Positions 1 to 21,328 of a stretch of DNA of 64,000 bases are shown here, piece after piece (the stretch's first letter is position 1; every line of letters begins with the position of its first letter). The position numbers and the translations under genes are program-made. This DNA is from Alloacidobacterium dinghuense. GTDB taxonomy: Bacteria > Acidobacteriota > Terriglobia > Terriglobales > Acidobacteriaceae. Where the stretch lies: NCBI RefSeq assembly GCF_014274465.1, contig NZ_CP060394.1, positions 2,294,001-2,358,000 of the forward strand, in the 5' to 3' direction. The notes under the pieces were generated by a model. That model had not been told where the DNA came from and ran no database searches. It saw only the letters and a list, made by a program, of their open reading frames with translations.

Positions 1-2228
1 CGATCATCCCGCTTGTCGGAGCCGTTTTTGAAGCCGGTGAGAATCGTGGCGCCATAGGAGCCGCTGTCGTCAGTAAGGTCGATCCAGTGGTGCGACGCAA
101 CTTCAAACTGGCGATCGTAGGCATTGGGACGCTGGATGGTTCCAACTTCCCAGTTGTAGGTCGCCATCTTATTGCTCGCAGAGAGCGGAAAGACGGCTTT
201 GAGATTTGCCGACAGAGATTTCCAGTCAATGGAATTGCTGAACTCGACTCGATTGCCTGCATCGCCATCGGACAGGCGAATCGTCTGCACGAACTTCGAT
301 CCTTCGGTTTCGCGTGAGACTTCGACGGCTATGCGTGCGGGACCGTTCTCGACAACGCGGACTTTTGCCGGACCGGCAACGTACCTGCGCGGAGCAGCCT
401 GCTCCTGATCGAAATCCATGTTCCATGCAGGCCATTGTCTGGGCGTGTCGTTGGAGATGGCGAGACGAATGGGCGCGGAGAGGAGTTCCTTGTTGAGGGT
501 CTTGTCGAAGATGCTGGATACGTCGCCGTCGCTGTTGAGTATGACCTTGTAGCGGGCGTTCTCGAGCGAGGATTCAGTTACGTGCAGATCCGATGAACCG
601 CTGGGCGCTCCCGTAGGCGCGACGCTGTAAATGGCGTAGCCGACAGATGGTGTCTTCGCTACGAAGAGCACTTTGCCATTCTCAAGTTGCGCGGGGACGT
701 CTTTACCATCGGGGCCGGTGACGCGGACGGCCTTTGGCTGTGAGCCGGGAAACGTGACTGCGGCTTCAACGATGTCTTCTCGCTCGATGTTCAGCGGGTT
801 GTAGACGACAACCGGGATTCCGCTGACTTGCGTGTTTAGCCCGGATGCTATCGACTGAGTTGCGCTCGTGAGCACAGTCGCAAACTGGTTGAGCGCGATG
901 ACATCGTCATTCTGTGCGAACTCATAGGCGCGGGGCGTAGCCGTGCCGGCGCCGGTATCGTGGAATTGTCCGCCCATCACGAGCGTCCAGGCATCGTTCA
1001 GCCGCTGTTGCGGATATGGACGTCCGCCCATCCACGCAGCCGCTACAGAAGCTTTTTCAGCAGCATCGGCGAGAAGCTCATTTTCGCGGTTCCAACGCTT
1101 GTGGTAAGCCTGCGAGGTCAGCGATCCGGCTGAGTGGTTGATCAGTTCGAGGTCGCCTTTGTACCTCGGCATCTTCGATTGCATGTCCGGCTTAATATCG
1201 AGGAACATCTGGTCTGCGGCAGAGGAGACAACGCGTACCGGACCGTCGCCCAGACGAACTGGATGGCCATCTGTTCCCTGTGAAGAATTTCCGGCCGAGG
1301 GAAGGACAGCATCGCCTTGCGTCACCATCGCTTCGAGAAGCTTCACTGACTCTTCATCCACTGCCCCACCGATGTCGCCCGTTCCGATGTAGTGATAGTC
1401 GGCGAAGACGCCCGTAGCTTTGCCATCGATGTCGATGCGCTTCACCCAATCCGTCTCCGGTGGACCTTGCCCGGGACCGCGGAAAGAATCTGGGGCTGGA
1501 GATGGCGGTGGAGTCTTGCTCAAATCGGAGTGGATTCGGCTGCCGTAGCCGCCGGGATTCAGAGCAGCCAGAACAGTCTCCCCATCGGGGCCCTCCCATA
1601 CGCCGACATTGAAGGGAATGCCTTCCGGAGTCTGTTCCGGAGAATCCGGTCCACCCACTTGTGGCGCTGGCTGCCAGGCTGCGCTGAGTTTCTGTGTTGA
1701 AAAGCCCTTCACCCCGGCATGAGCCAGGATGGTGGGCAACGATGCCGGGAATCCGAAGCAGTCGGGCAGCATGTACTCGGCGCTGGCCTTGCCGAATTCC
1801 TTCCGGAAGTAAGTGTTGCCGTACAGTACCTGCCGAAAAATAGACTCCGCGCTGGGTAGATTCACATCGCCTTCTTCCATCGAGGAACCTGCCGGATACC
1901 AGTTCCCTGCGGCGATGTATTGCTTCATCTTCGCGTAATCGTCAGGGAAATACTCCTTCATCAGCCGATATCGATTTGCGCCTGTCCAGTTGAAAACATA
2001 GTGCGGGTACTTCGAGATGTAATCGAAGTTCACGCGCATCGTTTTTAGAAGGTATTCGCTAATCGATTGCTGAAAATCCCAGCGCCACTGCGTATCGAGA
2101 TGGGCATATGGCACCACGTACAAGGTAGGCTGCTTGGTAATGTCAGGCGCCTTCATGGTCTGTGCGACCGCGCCCACTGCGATTGCCGTCCCTAGGATGG
2201 CGACAAGGCTCTTTGCGAAAAATGACAT
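1..2228 (-). CDS. Exported GH38 alpha-mannosidase, 3' end beyond the window
   Basis: A secreted glycoside hydrolase family 38 alpha-mannosidase, predicted to release mannose from glycans outside the cytoplasm. The frame is open from the ATG at 2228 to the window edge, so 742 residues are visible of the roughly 1000 usual for the family. Residues 1-23 form a signal peptide ending AVGAVAQ. The metal-binding motif AHLDTQWRW is at about 42-50 and LPDCFGFPAS carries the likely nucleophile Asp156. The later stretch WIDLTDDSGSYGATI is typical of lysosomal-type GH38 beta domains. GGAG lies just upstream of the ATG. A LacI-type operator and a TTGACA box lie further upstream, suggesting sugar-responsive control. 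Family assignment is firm; the exact glycan linkage is not known. Confidence 0.9.
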   Translation of the reverse strand, partial: MSFFAKSLVAILGTAIAVGAVAQTMKAPDITKQPTLYVVPYAHLDTQWRWDFQQSISEYLLKTMRVNFDYISKYPHYVFNWTGANRYRLMKEYFPDDYAKMKQYIAAGNWYPAGSSMEEGDVNLPSAESIFRQVLYGNTYFRKEFGKASAEYMLPDCFGFPASLPTILAHAGVKGFSTQKLSAAWQPAPQVGGPDSPEQTPEGIPFNVGVWEGPDGETVLAALNPGGYGSRIHSDLSKTPPPSPAPDSFRGPGQGPPETDWVKRIDIDGKATGVFADYHYIGTGDIGGAVDEESVKLLEAMVTQGDAVLPSAGNSSQGTDGHPVRLGDGPVRVVSSAADQMFLDIKPDMQSKMPRYKGDLELINHSAGSLTSQAYHKRWNRENELLADAAEKASVAAAWMGGRPYPQQRLNDAWTLVMGGQFHDTGAGTATPRAYEFAQNDDVIALNQFATVLTSATQSIASGLNTQVSGIPVVVYNPLNIEREDIVEAAVTFPGSQPKAVRVTGPDGKDVPAQLENGKVLFVAKTPSVGYAIYSVAPTGAPSGSSDLHVTESSLENARYKVILNSDGDVSSIFDKTLNKELLSAPIRLAISNDTPRQWPAWNMDFDQEQAAPRRYVAGPAKVRVVENGPARIAVEVSRETEGSKFVQTIRLSDGDAGNRVEFSNSIDWKSLSANLKAVFPLSASNKMATYNWEVGTIQRPNAYDRQFEVASHHWIDLTDDSGSYGATILTGFKNGSDKRDD

Positions 2229-2285
2229 GCTCACTCCGGTTTCAACAATAGACAGCATTCATCGGACAGGTTGTTTTTACTGGTT

Positions 2286-2299
2286 TGGAATCGTTACCA
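2286..2299 (-). promoter_or_regulatory. Putative LacI-family operator of the GH38 gene
   Basis: The 14-mer TGGTAACGATTCCA (read on the minus strand) is an imperfect palindrome with a central CG. It matches the general LacI/GalR operator pattern TGNAANCGNTTNCA at all but one defined position. It ends 58 bases before the mannosidase start and lies downstream of a TTGACA box at 2340-2345, where a bound repressor would block transcription. No LacI gene is in the window, so the regulator is inferred. Confidence 0.5.
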
Positions 2300-2360
2300 T
2301 CTTCCAGACACAACAATTTATTAATCGCAGGCGGGTATTTGTCAAGCAGGCGGGTTTGCT

Positions 2361-2386
2361 CCGGTGAAGGGCCTTCCCTTCACCGG
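2361..2386. repeat. Perfect 11-bp inverted repeat downstream of the VOC gene
   Basis: CCGGTGAAGGG at 2361-2371 pairs perfectly with CCCTTCACCGG at 2376-2386 across a 4-base loop. It lies after the VOC gene stop, so it could end that transcript. No T-run follows on the minus strand, so an ordinary intrinsic terminator is not supported. It also sits just upstream of the mannosidase promoter. Confidence 0.5.
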
Positions 2387-2430
2387 AACGAGTGAGAGTG
2401 GGAGATTAGACCAGTGGTGATCAGGCTTCG

Positions 2431-2913
2431 TTAAACCTTGCCAGCTTTTTCCCTGCCTCTTTCGAAAGCAGCTTCAGCGCCTTCTTCAAGTTCGGTTGGG
2501 GTCGGGTTCTTCACGGATTGCCCAATGGACCACAAGTGTCCGAAGGGATCGGTGAACTGGCCGTAGAGGTCACCCCAGAACTGCTCCTTGAATGGCATGA
2601 CGACGGTGCCACCGGCGGCGACAGCACGGTCCCAGGCCGCCTGGCCGTCCTCGACCTGAAGGTGGAGGGTTACGGACGTGCCGCCCAGTGCCTGCGGCGT
2701 ACTGCTTTTGCCGTCATGGAATTCGGGAAAATCATCGGCAAAAAAGAGGGCGCTGCCGTTGATGTTGAGATGGACGTGCATGAGTTTGTCGCTGCCTGGC
2801 GCGCCGTGGCGGGCGACTTCAGATGCGCCGAAAGCCTTTTTGTAGAACTCAATGGCTGCCTTGGCATCGCTGACGGTGAGATATGGGGTCAGACCCATGA
2901 CTGCATTTTCCAT
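2431..2913 (-). CDS. VOC (glyoxalase/PhnB-like) superfamily protein
   Basis: A 160-residue protein of the vicinal oxygen chelate superfamily, closest in look to PhnB/YdcJ-like proteins of unknown substrate. It opens with GLTPYLTVSDAKAAIEFYKK, the typical first beta-alpha unit. It contains LMHVHLNINGSALFFADD, with a His that could bind metal, and ends with a glyoxalase-like strand GDLYGQFTDPFGHLWSIG. No signal peptide is seen. It stands alone on the minus strand, divergent from the MFS gene, with 116 bases between them. The family is clear; the reaction cannot be deduced. It could be an antibiotic-binding or a metabolic isomerase-type protein. Confidence 0.85.
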   Translation of the reverse strand: MENAVMGLTPYLTVSDAKAAIEFYKKAFGASEVARHGAPGSDKLMHVHLNINGSALFFADDFPEFHDGKSSTPQALGGTSVTLHLQVEDGQAAWDRAVAAGGTVVMPFKEQFWGDLYGQFTDPFGHLWSIGQSVKNPTPTELEEGAEAAFERGREKAGKV

Positions 2914-3029
2914 TTTGAAGACTCCTGTATCGGGTCGCTGCCCGACGGTGAAGTATATCCGGCGGAGCCATGGCGGGGCGTGAATTTTTTGTCAGGTTTT
3001 ACTTGTTTTACGCTGTGTTTTAAGCCCAA

Positions 3030-4238
3030 TTGCTGAATGCGATAGGATTGATTGGTTCGATGCCAGGGTGGGCTCCCACAGCAGGAATGGTCAATTCATT
3101 GAACGGTGAAAACAAGCCATCTGCTCAGGTCGTAGCGGCGCTCTATCTGGGATTTGTTCTAACCGGGATTGGTACCAATCTGCTTGGCTGTATCCTGCCG
3201 GCGCTGAGTGGAATCTGGGGCCTGAGCGACAGCCATTCCGGGTTTCTGTTTGCAGCGCAGTTTGCCGGATCGTCAACCGGCGCGCTCCTGATGCAATCTG
3301 ATTTGTTCAAAAGCATTGTTCGGGGATACGTGTTGCTCATTCTCGGCTCGATTGCTTTTGCGTTTTGCCGAGGTCATCTTGCTCCGCTGATTCTCTTCTG
3401 CTACGGGCTTGGCCTTGGCTCAGCGATGACGGCGATCAGCATGATTTTCGGGCGCATGTACACGACAAATCGTGGCGCGTCGTTGTCGCTGCTAAATGCG
3501 TTCTGGGGACTAGGCGCGGTTGTCTGTCCGATGCTGGCTACAGTCTGGGAGCGATTCGAATCGGCGAATTCGATCTATCTTGGGCTTGCTCTGGCTGCCG
3601 TACTGCCTCTGTTCGCGCTTGCGCTCCAATATCGCTACGTGTCGCAGTTGCGCGACGAGATCACGGTTGTGAGCAATCGGCATACAAAGTTCTCTTTGCT
3701 CGTTCCGCTCGCGATCTTTGCATTTCTTTACGTCGGAGTTGAGTCGTCGATTAGCGGCTGGATGATGACCTACGTGCATCGTTTGCCGCTTGCGAGCGGT
3801 TTGTATGCGCCGATTGCGACGTCGTTCTTCTGGATCGCGCTGCTTGTGGGCAGGTCGGTTGCGCCGGCAGTGCTGAAGAGGATTTCTGAGTCCGGGCTGC
3901 TGATGATTACGCTTTGTGTGGTGCTGGTAAGCAACGTGATGCTTCTGCTCAGCTACACGCCCGCAATGAGTATAACGAGCGCTGCGCTGGCGGGATTGAT
4001 GCTGGCTCCTATTTTTCCCTTGTGTCTGTCGAAAGTGCTGGCGATTGCGAGTGGTCCTTCGGAATCGCGATGGGTGTTTGCGATCAGCGGGCTCGGTGGG
4101 GCGGTGTTGCCGTGGATGACTGGCCAGGTGGCTTCGCTGAGCGGTTCGCTGCGGACAGGCTTGGCTGTGCCCTTGGTGGCTGCGATAGTGATGCTGCTGT
4201 TGCAGGTGCGGACGCAGCGTGTTTTGGGTAGAGGCTGA
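3030..4238 (+). CDS. MFS transporter, FucP/sugar-permease-like
   Basis: A major facilitator superfamily permease with about 12 hydrophobic segments across 402 residues, beginning near residue 35 (VVAALYLGFVLTGIGTNLL). The layout (GFLFAAQFAGSSTGALL, LGLGSAMTAISMIFGR) resembles the fucose/sugar permease branch, but the substrate cannot be read. The start is uncertain: ATG codons at 3030, 3060 and 3087 all lack a good Shine-Dalgarno site, and the mature transporter needs only the last of them. It stands alone. Its 3' end is followed by a copy of the dispersed CAGATTCTTCGC...GGATGAC repeat. Confidence 0.8.
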   Translation: MLNAIGLIGSMPGWAPTAGMVNSLNGENKPSAQVVAALYLGFVLTGIGTNLLGCILPALSGIWGLSDSHSGFLFAAQFAGSSTGALLMQSDLFKSIVRGYVLLILGSIAFAFCRGHLAPLILFCYGLGLGSAMTAISMIFGRMYTTNRGASLSLLNAFWGLGAVVCPMLATVWERFESANSIYLGLALAAVLPLFALALQYRYVSQLRDEITVVSNRHTKFSLLVPLAIFAFLYVGVESSISGWMMTYVHRLPLASGLYAPIATSFFWIALLVGRSVAPAVLKRISESGLLMITLCVVLVSNVMLLLSYTPAMSITSAALAGLMLAPIFPLCLSKVLAIASGPSESRWVFAISGLGGAVLPWMTGQVASLSGSLRTGLAVPLVAAIVMLLLQVRTQRVLGRG

Positions 4239-19557: not shown

Positions 19558-20088
19558 ATGCCTCGTTCCACTGGTACCTACGCGATTTTCAAAACGAGCG
19601 AAGGGACGGTCGTCTGCCGTCTTTTTGAGAAAGAAGCACCGAAGACGGTTGCCAATTTTGTCGAGCTTGCCGAGGGCAAGCGTGAGTGGACGCATCCTGT
19701 AGGGGGCAAGAAGAGTAGCGACAAGCTCTATGACGGCACGATTTTTCATCGCGTCATTCCGGAGTTCATGATTCAGGGCGGCGACCCGGCGGGGACGGGC
19801 ATGGGCGGTCCTGGGTACAAGTTCGAAGACGAGACGAAGGGGTCTCCGCACTCCTTCGACAAAAAAGGCAAGCTGGCAATGGCGAATGCGGGGCCGAATA
19901 CGAACGGCTCACAGTTCTTTATCACAGTCGCTCCGACGACGTGGCTGACGGGCAAGCATACGATCTTTGGCGAAGTGGTTGAAGGGCAGGATGTGGCCGA
20001 CAAGATTTCGACCGTCGCTCGCGGAGCGCAGGATAAGCCGAAGACTCCGGTCACGATTGACTCGCTGGTGATTGAGCGCGTGGCTTAA
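19558..20088 (+). CDS. ppiB: Cytoplasmic cyclophilin-type peptidylprolyl isomerase
   Basis: A compact 176-residue cyclophilin with no signal peptide, preceded by a strong Shine-Dalgarno site (AAGGAG, 5 bases before the ATG). It has the same core as its neighbour: [50 protein letters not shown]. It acts as a folding catalyst in the cytoplasm. The pair looks like a duplication in which one copy gained or lost an export signal. After its stop, a 9-bp stem (20110-20118 with 20143-20151) without a T-run precedes the mobile element. Confidence 0.93.
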   Translation: MPRSTGTYAIFKTSEGTVVCRLFEKEAPKTVANFVELAEGKREWTHPVGGKKSSDKLYDGTIFHRVIPEFMIQGGDPAGTGMGGPGYKFEDETKGSPHSFDKKGKLAMANAGPNTNGSQFFITVAPTTWLTGKHTIFGEVVEGQDVADKISTVARGAQDKPKTPVTIDSLVIERVA

Positions 20089-20148
20089 CACCGCCACCGA
20101 TTGAAAATTGCCATCTCAATTGGTTCGCAGCTGCGTTCCGAATGAGAT

Positions 20149-20156
20149 GGCATTTG
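20149..20156. repeat. Target-site duplication, left copy
   Basis: GGCATTTG directly abuts the left inverted repeat of the 574-bp element. An identical GGCATTTG abuts the right end at 20731-20738. Confidence 0.7.
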
Positions 20157-20730
20157 GGTAGTAGGTCAATTTGATCTGGGCGCGAAGTTACCGATAACGA
20201 GACTTTCGGGAACTCTTACCAGAGATTGAGACTTTTCAGCTCAGATCGAGGAATCAGTGTGACAGCCTGAGCGATCAAGAAGCACTCGCACCCGTACGAA
20301 GGATTGATTTCGAGCGCCACCCGATTCTCTATTCTTAGCCGCTCAAGCTTGTCATTTGCCAGCTTCTCTCCGTCGGGGCTTGCAGCGAATCCGTAGATGT
20401 CCATGTCGCTTCTGGTCAGCTCCTGTCCTTGACGCATAACAATGTCAAAGATGATGTTGCCCTGCAGGAGGCTGTCCATCCGCATTCTTGTCACATCGTC
20501 CGCGACCAAGGCAAATGCCTCGTTGCCTTCGGTCCTGATGAAGATAATCACCTGCGCCTCACGAATCAGTAAGCCATCTACGAACCCATCGTGGAACTTG
20601 CTGTTGTAAGCGTTCATTCTCTAGATCGTCGCTTAAGGGCATGGAATTTCACAAGTGAATGAGCGGCACTCCTCAAAAATGGGGTTATCGGTAACTACAA
20701 CCTGGCTGAAACTTAAATTGACCCACTACC
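20157..20730. mobile_element. 574-bp non-autonomous mobile element with passenger gene
   Basis: The ends are inverted repeats. GGTAGTAGGTCAATTT at 20157-20172 mirrors AAATTGACCCACTACC at 20715-20730 (one mismatch in 16). A second inner block, AGTTACCGATAAC at 20186-20198, mirrors GTTATCGGTAACT at 20684-20696 exactly. An 8-bp direct repeat, GGCATTTG, flanks both ends, as expected for a target duplication. Inside is a single minus-strand gene with no transposase features, so the element would be moved in trans. Families making 8-bp duplications include IS1595, IS66, ISL3 and IS256; I cannot assign one. Its right end lies 15 bases before the likely -35 box of the fluoride riboswitch promoter. 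Confidence 0.75.
20216..20617 (-). CDS. Unknown 133-residue passenger gene of the mobile element
   Basis: I do not recognise this protein. It has 133 residues, mixed alpha/beta character, no signal peptide and no TM segment. Notable stretches are LIREAQVIIFIRTEGNEAFALVADDVTRMRMDSLL, shown here only as its two ends LIREAQVIIF and DVTRMRMDSLL, and INPSYGCECFLIAQAVTLIPR near the C-terminus (ends INPSYGCEC and TLIPR). It is not transposase-like: there is no DDE/DEDD pattern or HTH. It is the only gene inside the inverted-repeat element, reading towards its left end. The ATG at 20617 has no clear Shine-Dalgarno site. It may be a cargo, regulatory or immunity-type gene; nothing decides. Confidence 0.6.
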   Translation of the reverse strand: MNAYNSKFHDGFVDGLLIREAQVIIFIRTEGNEAFALVADDVTRMRMDSLLQGNIIFDIVMRQGQELTRSDMDIYGFAASPDGEKLANDKLERLRIENRVALEINPSYGCECFLIAQAVTLIPRSELKSLNLW

Positions 20731-20738
20731 GGCATTTG
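20731..20738. repeat. Target-site duplication, right copy
   Basis: GGCATTTG directly follows the right inverted repeat and is identical to 20149-20156. Confidence 0.7.
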
Positions 20739-20774: not shown

Positions 20775-20788
20775 AACTTCAGAATTTA

Positions 20789-20874
20789 AGGGTGAAGGAG
20801 TTCACCTTTAACCGCTGTCCCCTTCTTTAGCCGGACAGATGATGACTCCTGACAGGGAAGCCTGTCGTGGAGTC
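20789..20874 (+). ncRNA. Fluoride riboswitch (crcB motif)
   Basis: The aptamer matches the crcB motif. GGTGAA/TTCACC pairs 20791-20796 with 20801-20806, CTGTCC/GGACAG pairs 20815-20820 with 20833-20838, and AGGAGT/ACTCCT pairs 20796-20801 with 20845-20850. The conserved TTTAACCGC and GATGATGACTCC blocks are present. An alternative hairpin, GACTCC-T-GACAGG-GAAG-CCTGTC-GT-GGAGTC (20844-20874), would capture the aptamer's 3' strand. Binding fluoride should prevent it and allow crcB expression. There is no T-run after that hairpin, so control may be by an early Rho-type stop or another route. Confidence 0.93.
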
Positions 20875-20950: not shown

Positions 20951-21328
20951 TTGCAGAACTACGTCTACATTGCTTTGGGCGGCGCGCTTGGATCCCTTAC
21001 TCGTTATTGGGTTGGAGCCACGGTTGCAAACCGCATGGGCACGAGGTTTCCCTACGGCACTTTCATCGTGAACATCACTGCCTGCCTCATTCTAGGGTTC
21101 GCACTCACTCTGATGGGCAAACGGCCGGAGATTAGTCCAGCTCTGCGTTTTCTGATTCCGATTGGGTTTGTCGGCGCCTACAGCACCTTCTCGACATTTG
21201 AGTGGGAGACATTTGCGAACCTGCAGACGGGCGCATTTTTCATCGCAGGGCTCTATGTGATTCTGAGCTGTGTTCTTGGACTCGCCGCGGTTTGGTGCGG
21301 TGTGCTGCTTGCGCGGCTCTGCTCGTGA
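20951..21328 (+). CDS. crcB: Fluoride ion exporter CrcB/Fluc
   Basis: A small dual-topology fluoride channel that expels F- from the cytoplasm. The best start is TTG at 20951: it has AAGGAG about 6 bases upstream and gives MQNYVYIALGGALGSLTRYW, the standard CrcB N-terminus (125 residues). A GTG/ATG-type start at 20906 would add 15 atypical residues. Four TM helices, the FGTFIVN-like motif (PYGTFIVNITAC) and the GFVGAYSTFSTFEWET pore signature are present. It is controlled by the fluoride riboswitch upstream and followed 30 bases later by a DUF190 gene, a common partner. Confidence 0.95.
   Translation: MQNYVYIALGGALGSLTRYWVGATVANRMGTRFPYGTFIVNITACLILGFALTLMGKRPEISPALRFLIPIGFVGAYSTFSTFEWETFANLQTGAFFIAGLYVILSCVLGLAAVWCGVLLARLCS

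What the first reader, a model, noticed from the sequence alone, without database searches (positions are those of the whole stretch)
20149..20738. 574-bp MITE-like element with an unknown passenger gene, inserted beside the fluoride riboswitch promoter
Three independent signs agree: 16-bp terminal inverted repeats with one mismatch, a perfect 13-bp inner inverted block, and identical 8-bp direct repeats (GGCATTTG) exactly at both outer edges. The only gene inside is not transposase-like. Non-autonomous elements carrying a 133-residue cargo gene are uncommon. The insertion left the riboswitch -35/-10 region 15 bases away, and could alter its upstream context.
Basis: seen in the sequence. Interest (0 to 1): 0.72.

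Follow-up and report, generated by a model that had tools for sequence, protein, structure and literature searches.

The report
IS1-type mobile cassette carrying one gene
A 574-base piece of DNA beside a fluoride switch looks like a small jumping element of the IS1 type that has no jumping enzyme of its own and instead carries a single gene, possibly an immunity gene against a rival bacterium's toxin.

Summary
Two same-genus genomes have cyclophilin, riboswitch and crcB side by side without it. Six other loci of the genome share one or both ends around different genes. The tip occurs in 136 of 397 genomes of the order; elements with such tips and 8-bp duplications include some with an IS1-type transposase plus passengers, one on a named Mesorhizobium loti plasmid. 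So it is best called a transposase-less mobile insertion cassette of an IS1-type group, not a MITE. A subgroup, including this one, shares about 55 bp of end with a GTTACCnATAAC motif that was not matched in the transposase-bearing copies searched. The 133-residue passenger belongs to a rare unnamed family; its model resembles a chain of toxin-immunity complex 8owu (Z 8.9), and one of eight homologues directly follows an RHS gene: immunity-like, unproven. Mobilisation in trans is inferred; an effect on the riboswitch is not shown.

The parts
20149..20156 (.). left copy of the 8-bp target duplication GGCATTTG
20731..20738 (.). right copy of the 8-bp target duplication GGCATTTG
20157..20172 (+). 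terminal inverted repeat of the B-type end (GGTAGTAGGTCAATTT)
   Evidence: similar tips in IS1-type elements
20715..20730 (-). terminal inverted repeat of the A-type end (GGTAGTGGGTCAATTT read inward)
20157..20222 (+). extended B-type end, shared with the B ends of five other loci (E2 to E6)
   Evidence: the model was built from these ends, so its own-genome matches are by construction; searches used this element alone
20666..20730 (-). extended A-type end, shared with the A ends of six other loci (E2 to E7)
20186..20198 (+). subterminal motif AGTTACCGATAAC (near-palindrome), B side
20684..20696 (-). subterminal motif AGTTACCGATAAC, A side
20216..20617 (-). passenger gene, 133 aa, unnamed family, immunity-protein-like by fold match and by one homologue's context
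19558..20088 (+). flanking cyclophilin-type gene (named from its sequence, no family search); conserved neighbour in two same-genus genomes
20108..20152 (.). strong hairpin just upstream of the insertion; the left duplication overlaps its 3' foot
20782..20858 (+). fluoride riboswitch
20951..21328 (+). crcB-type gene (name from position after the riboswitch and sequence; start codon uncertain)

Best explanation
The element is a mobile insertion cassette of an IS1-type transposon group. Two IS1-type ends (tip GGTAGTGGGTCARTTT) bracket one passenger gene, and there is no transposase inside. A transposase of a related autonomous element, acting in trans, would recognise the tips, make a cut staggered by 8 bp and insert the cassette; the filled-in gap is the GGCATTTG duplication. 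It landed between the cyclophilin gene and the fluoride riboswitch-crcB gene, most simply after this species separated from two same-genus relatives that lack it. The passenger most likely helps its host as an orphan immunity-type protein. SHOWN: the ends, the duplication, other loci with these ends and other genes, relatives without the element, transposase-bearing elements with such tips. INFERRED: mobilisation in trans, the identity of the helper transposase, the time of insertion, the passenger's function.
For: Anatomy. Nine further matches to this element's ends at six other loci of the genome with this element alone as query; E2 to E6 each have one A and one B end and different genes inside. 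Element absent in G101 and G070, where cyclophilin (88% identical) and crcB (82% and 77%) are adjacent with the riboswitch between them. Tip in 136 of 397 genomes of the order, reversed-pattern control in nine (my count of the table). Of 17 tip pairs kept, 13 have 8/8 duplications, 3 have 7/8, 1 has 6/8; five hold a full-length transposase, three a remnant, nine none (pairs below 6/8 were dropped, some regions were chosen because tips were paired, and three of the 17 are in the own genome). Transposases: Pfam PF03400 (IS1) above its cut-off in 5 of 5 scanned; invariant D, D, E and R in seven aligned. Named plasmids with an annotated 'IS1 family transposase' between inverted ends and exact 8-bp duplications (exactness was required by the script): Mesorhizobium loti CP050295.1 (GGTAGTGGGTCAGTTTGA at both ends), Acidiphilium multivorum and Hoeflea sp. 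(GGTAGTGTCTCAGTTTGA; left and right ends agree at 17 and 18 of 18).
Against: No intact transposase with exactly this tip was found in the own genome: of four matches to the transposase, two are intact, in elements with tips GGTAGTGGTGCAGTTTGA and GGTAGTGTCCTAATTTCG, and the element with the closest tip (465286-467108) keeps only a remnant. The end models built from this subgroup did not match the transposase-bearing elements searched (E <= 0.1). The other in-genome ends are diverged (77-90% identity in matched parts); only E2 has a near-intact duplication (7/8), so the sign of transposition is clear for this copy and weak for the others. The target sequence is not conserved in the two relatives, so loss of the element there is not formally excluded. 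NCBIfam's IS1 model is the best hit but below its curated cut-off in 3 of 3. The fourth plasmid region, Methylocapsa, gave no end pair.
Confidence: 0.82

Rival explanations
1. The subgroup of cassettes with the subterminal GTTACCnATAAC motif is mobilised by a different, still unseen transposase or needs a second DNA-binding factor; the shared outer tip is only part of the recognition signal.
For: About 55 bp of end with the motif is conserved next to tips (4 of 81 tips chosen by the tip alone outside the own genome, 0.3 expected from shuffles; the four agree at 82-94% over 54-56 bases and not further inside). All four lie in one other genus (g35, handles) and two of them sit beside similar DNA, so they are not fully independent. 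The motif is a near-palindrome, and the transposase-bearing elements searched were not matched. Genome G040 has inverted copies of the inner block with different outer sequences.
Against: Outer tip and 8-bp duplication equal those of the IS1-type elements; I saw no other transposase inside elements of this subgroup, apart from a fragment resembling an IS110-type transposase in E6 (by eye).
Confidence: 0.2
2. A MITE-like remnant: a decayed IS that by chance keeps an open reading frame.
For: Small size, no transposase, no promoter-like site found upstream of the ORF.
Against: The product has eight homologues (27-42% identity; one match holds a TAG) in other genera with invariant HDG, GN and SYG residues; no transposase remnant was detected in the element (profile search, printed); sister cassettes carry other open reading frames, several with known domains.
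Confidence: 0.08
3. A fixed chromosomal locus in which the inverted repeats serve regulation, not transposition.
For: None found beyond its position upstream of a riboswitch.
Against: Exact 8-bp duplication, absence in two same-genus relatives, ends shared with six other loci.
Confidence: 0.02
4. The passenger is not an immunity protein but a small regulator or binding protein of unknown role.
For: No Pfam or PADLOC match, only non-significant NCBIfam hits; beside seven of eight homologues I saw no RHS-like gene by eye within about 1.5 kb; best Foldseek E-value 0.007; the tool does not say which partner of complex 8owu chain E is.
Against: Fold match Z 8.9 against Z 5.4 for the first row outside 8owu and 5v77; homologue L090 begins 9 bases after an RHS-core gene with a further C-terminal region.
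Confidence: 0.45

Closest known systems
Mobile insertion cassettes (MIC231 of Bacillus cereus, mobilised by IS231A; mic-qnrD)
   Same: Passenger gene between inverted repeats, no transposase, target duplication, mobilisation expected in trans (passages of PMC3913671; PMC3129680)
   Different: Ends and duplication length are those of an IS1-type group, not of IS231 (IS4 family, recalled); asymmetric A/B ends with a subterminal motif; trans mobilisation not tested
Transporter ISs (tIS)
   Same: The autonomous relatives carry a transposase plus unrelated passenger genes; term seen in passages of PMC3129680 and PMC9330008
   Different: Classically tied to the IS1595 family (reference title seen); here PF03400 (IS1) was hit and no IS1595 model was listed; the focal element has no transposase
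IS1 family insertion sequences
   Same: DDE-type transposase with IS1 Pfam match, 8-bp duplications; GG-starting ends (family norm recalled)
   Different: Single ORF of 273-316 aa rather than two ORFs (two-ORF statement seen in a passage of PMC10017437); NCBIfam IS1 model below cut-off
Orphan immunity genes on mobile elements (acquired interbacterial defence clusters)
   Same: A possible immunity gene away from a toxin, on a mobile element (passages of PMC10470768)
   Different: One gene on a 574-bp cassette rather than an array; function untested

Membership tests
Mobile insertion cassette (MIC) | two inverted repeats bracketing the element | tested here: met
Mobile insertion cassette (MIC) | passenger gene present, transposase gene absent | tested here: met
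Mobile insertion cassette (MIC) | target-site duplication | tested here: met
   GGCATTTG twice
Mobile insertion cassette (MIC) | related autonomous elements with the same ends | tested here: inconclusive
   tip and duplication shared, but the region inside the tip is not and no intact exact-tip helper was found in the own genome
Mobile insertion cassette (MIC) | mobilisation in trans | not testable with these tools
   needs a transposition assay
IS1-type group (the relatives that carry a transposase) | IS1 transposase by Pfam profile | tested here: met
   PF03400 above gathering score in 5 of 5 scanned
IS1-type group (the relatives that carry a transposase) | NCBI's curated IS1 transposase model above its cut-off | tested here: not met
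   58.6-60.6 bits against 100 in 3 of 3, though it is the best hit; 4 of 5 plasmid homologues covering at least 80% of the query are annotated 'IS1 family transposase'
IS1-type group (the relatives that carry a transposase) | 8-bp target duplication (8-9 bp as the family's norm is recalled) | tested here: met
MITE | short, non-coding, multi-copy derivative of an IS | tested here: not met
   carries a conserved gene; the other loci with these ends carry different genes
Immunity protein of a polymorphic toxin | gene directly downstream of a toxin gene | tested here: inconclusive
   RHS gene upstream of one of eight homologues (L090), none here
Immunity protein of a polymorphic toxin | fold of a known immunity protein | tested here: inconclusive
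   8owu_E Z 8.9, rmsd 2.3, 91 aligned; chain role not stated by the tool
Immunity protein of a polymorphic toxin | neutralises a toxin | not testable with these tools
   needs an assay

The most novel reading that the evidence does not exclude
Acidobacteriaceae harbour a dispersed gene-cassette system built on IS1-type ends. Single-gene cassettes with about 55 bp of conserved A and B end and an operator-like subterminal motif are moved in trans, and shuttle unrelated, host-useful genes (immunity-like proteins, acetyltransferases, hydrolases) much as integron cassettes do, but without an integron. The motif would recruit a second factor that marks these cassettes as substrates, and cargo may be exchanged between the same ends.
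Probability: 0.22. Interest if true: 0.72.

Novelty: new variant of a known kind. Interest (0 to 1): 0.5.

Why it matters
It links an anonymous 574-bp insertion to an IS1-type transposon group whose tip is found in about a third of the genomes of the order examined (136 of 397) and whose members carry many unrelated genes (HicA-like, methylase plus HNH, proteasome-fold, acetyltransferase, possibly immunity-like). Such cassettes escape annotation that starts from transposases. If mobilisation in trans holds, they are a simple route by which single genes spread among soil bacteria; carriage of an orphan immunity gene, if confirmed, would tie it to competition between bacteria. In print I saw MICs and transporter ISs, but no IS1-type cassette family of Acidobacteria in the listings (a limited library).

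Tried and rejected
Considered from memory and dropped: IS21, IS256/Mutator-like or Tn7-like origin of the ends; the transposases found between such tips were IS1-type. Hairpin targeting: a strong hairpin (z about -5) ends at the insertion, but of 20 sites folded only this one and L131 1275-1833 have a left flank below z -4. The pattern scan of named contigs gave three stretches: L079 is a cassette with a 6/8 duplication; L080 cannot be judged because the stretch ends 28 bases after the match; L081 showed no close second end. The end models R1 and R2 find own-genome ends by construction; R1 with strict filters hit 3 of 100 family genomes, the own one included; R2 hit 4 of 4 genus genomes at E <= 0.05, mostly partial matches outside the own genome. 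No relative of the passenger was found in viral contigs (35 pattern matches, none confirmed) or plasmids (query was homologue L083). Foldseek gave no PDB match at E <= 0.001; sequence searches of the PDB gave nothing I consider meaningful. I found no paired ends of this type within about 1.5 kb of the eight homologues of the passenger. The single target sequence could not be shown in the relatives without the element. Pairs with duplications below 6/8 were dropped before the count (for example L122, whose repeat is shifted by one base, L130 and L140), and many stretches there had only 1.5 kb on each side, which favours short elements.

Full report
OBSERVATION. Window 20157-20730 (574 bp) has 16-bp ends with one mismatch, an inner 13-bp inverted block, and GGCATTTG at both edges. 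A scan of the full window for exact 8-bp repeats flanking inverted 16-mers ranks this pair first (15/16), the next at 12/16. The only substantial gene inside is 133 aa on the minus strand. The fluoride riboswitch at 20782-20858 is confirmed.

IT IS AN INSERTION. A crcB protein search over 61 genomes hit 49; the 30 loci returned were compared with the window's cyclophilin, passenger and crcB. Cyclophilin lies beside crcB in the own genome and in two same-genus genomes, G101 and G070 (88% identity; crcB 82% and 77%), with the fluoride riboswitch between them (nine loci scanned, six with a riboswitch). There the gap from cyclophilin to riboswitch is about 0.1 and 0.2 kb against 0.7 kb here, and the passenger is absent. 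The third relative, G100, had only a partial crcB and no locus. The intergenic letters are too diverged to show a single GGCATTTG.

OTHER COPIES IN THE GENOME. With this element alone as query, the own genome (6.27 Mb, one contig) gives nine further matches at six loci (each end alone). The ends are of two kinds, A (GGTAGTGGGTCAATTTAAGT...) and B (GGTAGTGGGTCAATTTGATCTGGGCG...); E1 to E6 have one of each, E7 only an A end. Contents differ: a Cupin_8 protein (E4), a 396-aa and a 227-aa protein without a solid family (E3, E2), several genes including DUF3313 and an acetyltransferase (E6), a 476-aa protein and a tandem duplication (E5). E2 keeps a 7/8 duplication; E3 to E6 show none clearly. These copies look old.

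THE TRANSPOSON GROUP. The tip GGTAGTGGGTCAATTTRA with at most one mismatch occurs in 136 of 397 genomes of the order; the reversed control occurs in nine by my count. Regions around some tips were read. Among tip pairs with at least 6 of 8 duplicated bases, 13 of 17 had 8/8, 3 had 7/8 and 1 had 6/8; five hold a full-length transposase, three a remnant, nine none. Pairs below 6/8 were dropped, some regions had been chosen because tips were paired, many stretches were short, and three of the 17 are in the own genome, so these are not frequencies. The transposases are IS1-type: PF03400 above gathering score in 5 of 5 scanned, invariant D67, D137, E200 and R207 in seven aligned (catalytic role inferred). 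NCBI's IS1 model is the best hit but below its cut-off in 3 of 3. Of 13 plasmid records with a homologue, five cover at least 80% of the query and four of these are annotated 'IS1 family transposase'. Of four regions examined, three show an end pair with an exact 8-bp duplication, which the script required: Mesorhizobium loti CP050295.1 (3370 bp, GGTAGTGGGTCAGTTTGA at both ends, CGCTGGTG), Acidiphilium multivorum and Hoeflea sp. (GGTAGTGTCTCAGTTTGA); Methylocapsa none.

PASSENGERS. Elements with a transposase or a remnant carry P63C-domain proteins, a DNA methylase with an HNH protein, an HTH-IrrE protein, a HicA-like protein (just below its cut-off) and a proteasome-fold protein. Transposase-less ones have one main ORF each: RibD_C (L128, 775 bp), GNAT (L079, 791 bp, named contig JAJYGR010000100.1), 162 aa (L152, 723 bp), 142 aa (L159, 645 bp), 107 aa (L131, 559 bp) and this one. 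Single-ended matches L136 and L151 adjoin an alpha/beta hydrolase and a DUF899 protein.

THE SHARED END. GTTACCnATAAC lies about 29-36 bases inside the tip in this element and its sisters. Among 81 distinct tips chosen by the tip alone outside the own genome, 4 have it (up to two mismatches) against 0.3 expected by shuffling (the count of 14 of 108 includes ends chosen for similarity). All four lie in one other genus (g35). They agree at 82-94% over the first 54-56 bases and show no further similarity over 800 bases inside: one end, different contents. L137 and L151 are also 77% identical over 382 bases outside the tip, beside similar ABC-permease genes, so these two are not independent, yet their contents differ. 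The end models did not match the transposase-bearing elements searched. So these cassettes form a subgroup whose close autonomous partner I did not find. In the own genome two IS1-type transposases are intact, in elements with tips GGTAGTGGTGCAGTTTGA and GGTAGTGTCCTAATTTCG.

THE 133-AA PROTEIN. No Pfam or PADLOC match, no significant NCBIfam match, one weak unnamed PHROG match. The family is in 9 of 398 genomes, the own one included (27-42% identity to the other eight); nine aligned sequences keep H9 D10 G11, G15, G53 N54 and S107 Y108 G109. The AlphaFold2 model has mean pLDDT 84.7. Foldseek finds no PDB match at E <= 0.001 (best 5v77, 0.007). The second look gives 8owu_E (complex of toxin PT7 with immunity PIM7) Z 8.9, rmsd 2.3, 91 aligned, and 5v77_B Z 8.8, the next rows being 5.4; the tool does not say which partner chain E is. 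One of eight homologues (L090) begins 9 bases after a gene with an RHS core above cut-off and a further C-terminal region. Immunity-like is my best guess at about even odds.

MECHANISM AND STATUS. Trans mobilisation by an IS1-type transposase is inferred from shared tips and duplication length. Nothing shows that the cassette alters the riboswitch: the RNA, and the region read by eye as its promoter, are intact downstream of it.

NOVELTY. Mobile insertion cassettes and transporter ISs are known (passages of PMC3913671, PMC3129680, PMC9330008). A review of prokaryotic MITEs has no occurrence of 'passenger' or 'cargo' (PMC10969869, term counts), and a comparative paper on Acidobacteria mentions many IS families (passages of PMC5900883). 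An IS1-type cassette family with such ends was not seen in my listings. I rate it a new variant of a known kind.

Noticed in passing
L137 4559 (minus) and L151 4122 (plus): Two genomes of genus g35 have a motif-bearing tip at nearly the same place upstream of similar ABC-permease genes (77% identity over 382 bases outside), but different genes inside (189-aa protein; DUF899 protein): cargo exchange or insertions close to each other.
   Followed up: partly
L123 3203-3451, L124 3639-3932, L145 3511-3822, L162 4177-4455, L131 2720-3952 (N-terminal part): Several transposase-bearing elements also encode a small protein (or domain) with a motif like KGGxARAxxLxPExRxxIAKKAAxARW (read by eye); it may be a conserved accessory protein. 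A 'histone H1' is annotated in the M. loti element (L195 2075-2284), not compared.
   Followed up: no
G000:C1:465286-467108 (L121 1287-3109): Own-genome IS1-type element with exact duplication TAAGACTC, a transposase remnant and a HicA-like toxin gene (PF07927 just below cut-off) beside another small gene.
   Followed up: partly
G000:C1:4372709-4375348 (L145 2710-5349): Intact IS1-type element with identical ends GGTAGTGTCCTAATTTCG and exact duplication GCCATGTT, carrying a proteasome-fold protein gene (PF00227).
   Followed up: partly
G040: L064 around 2101-3300, L067 3793, L069 4407: The subterminal inverted block also occurs in another genus with quite different outer sequences, as if the inner block and the tips were separate modules.
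   Followed up: partly
L015 2808-6577: Element E5 has a second copy of its right end plus flank about 1.9 kb downstream, that is, a tandem duplication.
   Followed up: no
window 20108-20152: A strong hairpin (z about -5) lies between the cyclophilin gene and the element; the left duplication overlaps its foot.
   Followed up: yes
G070 contigs C17 end and C25 start (L070, L073): A same-genus genome has A- and B-type ends at two contig ends that share an inner stretch, suggesting a repeated copy broken by the assembly.
   Followed up: no
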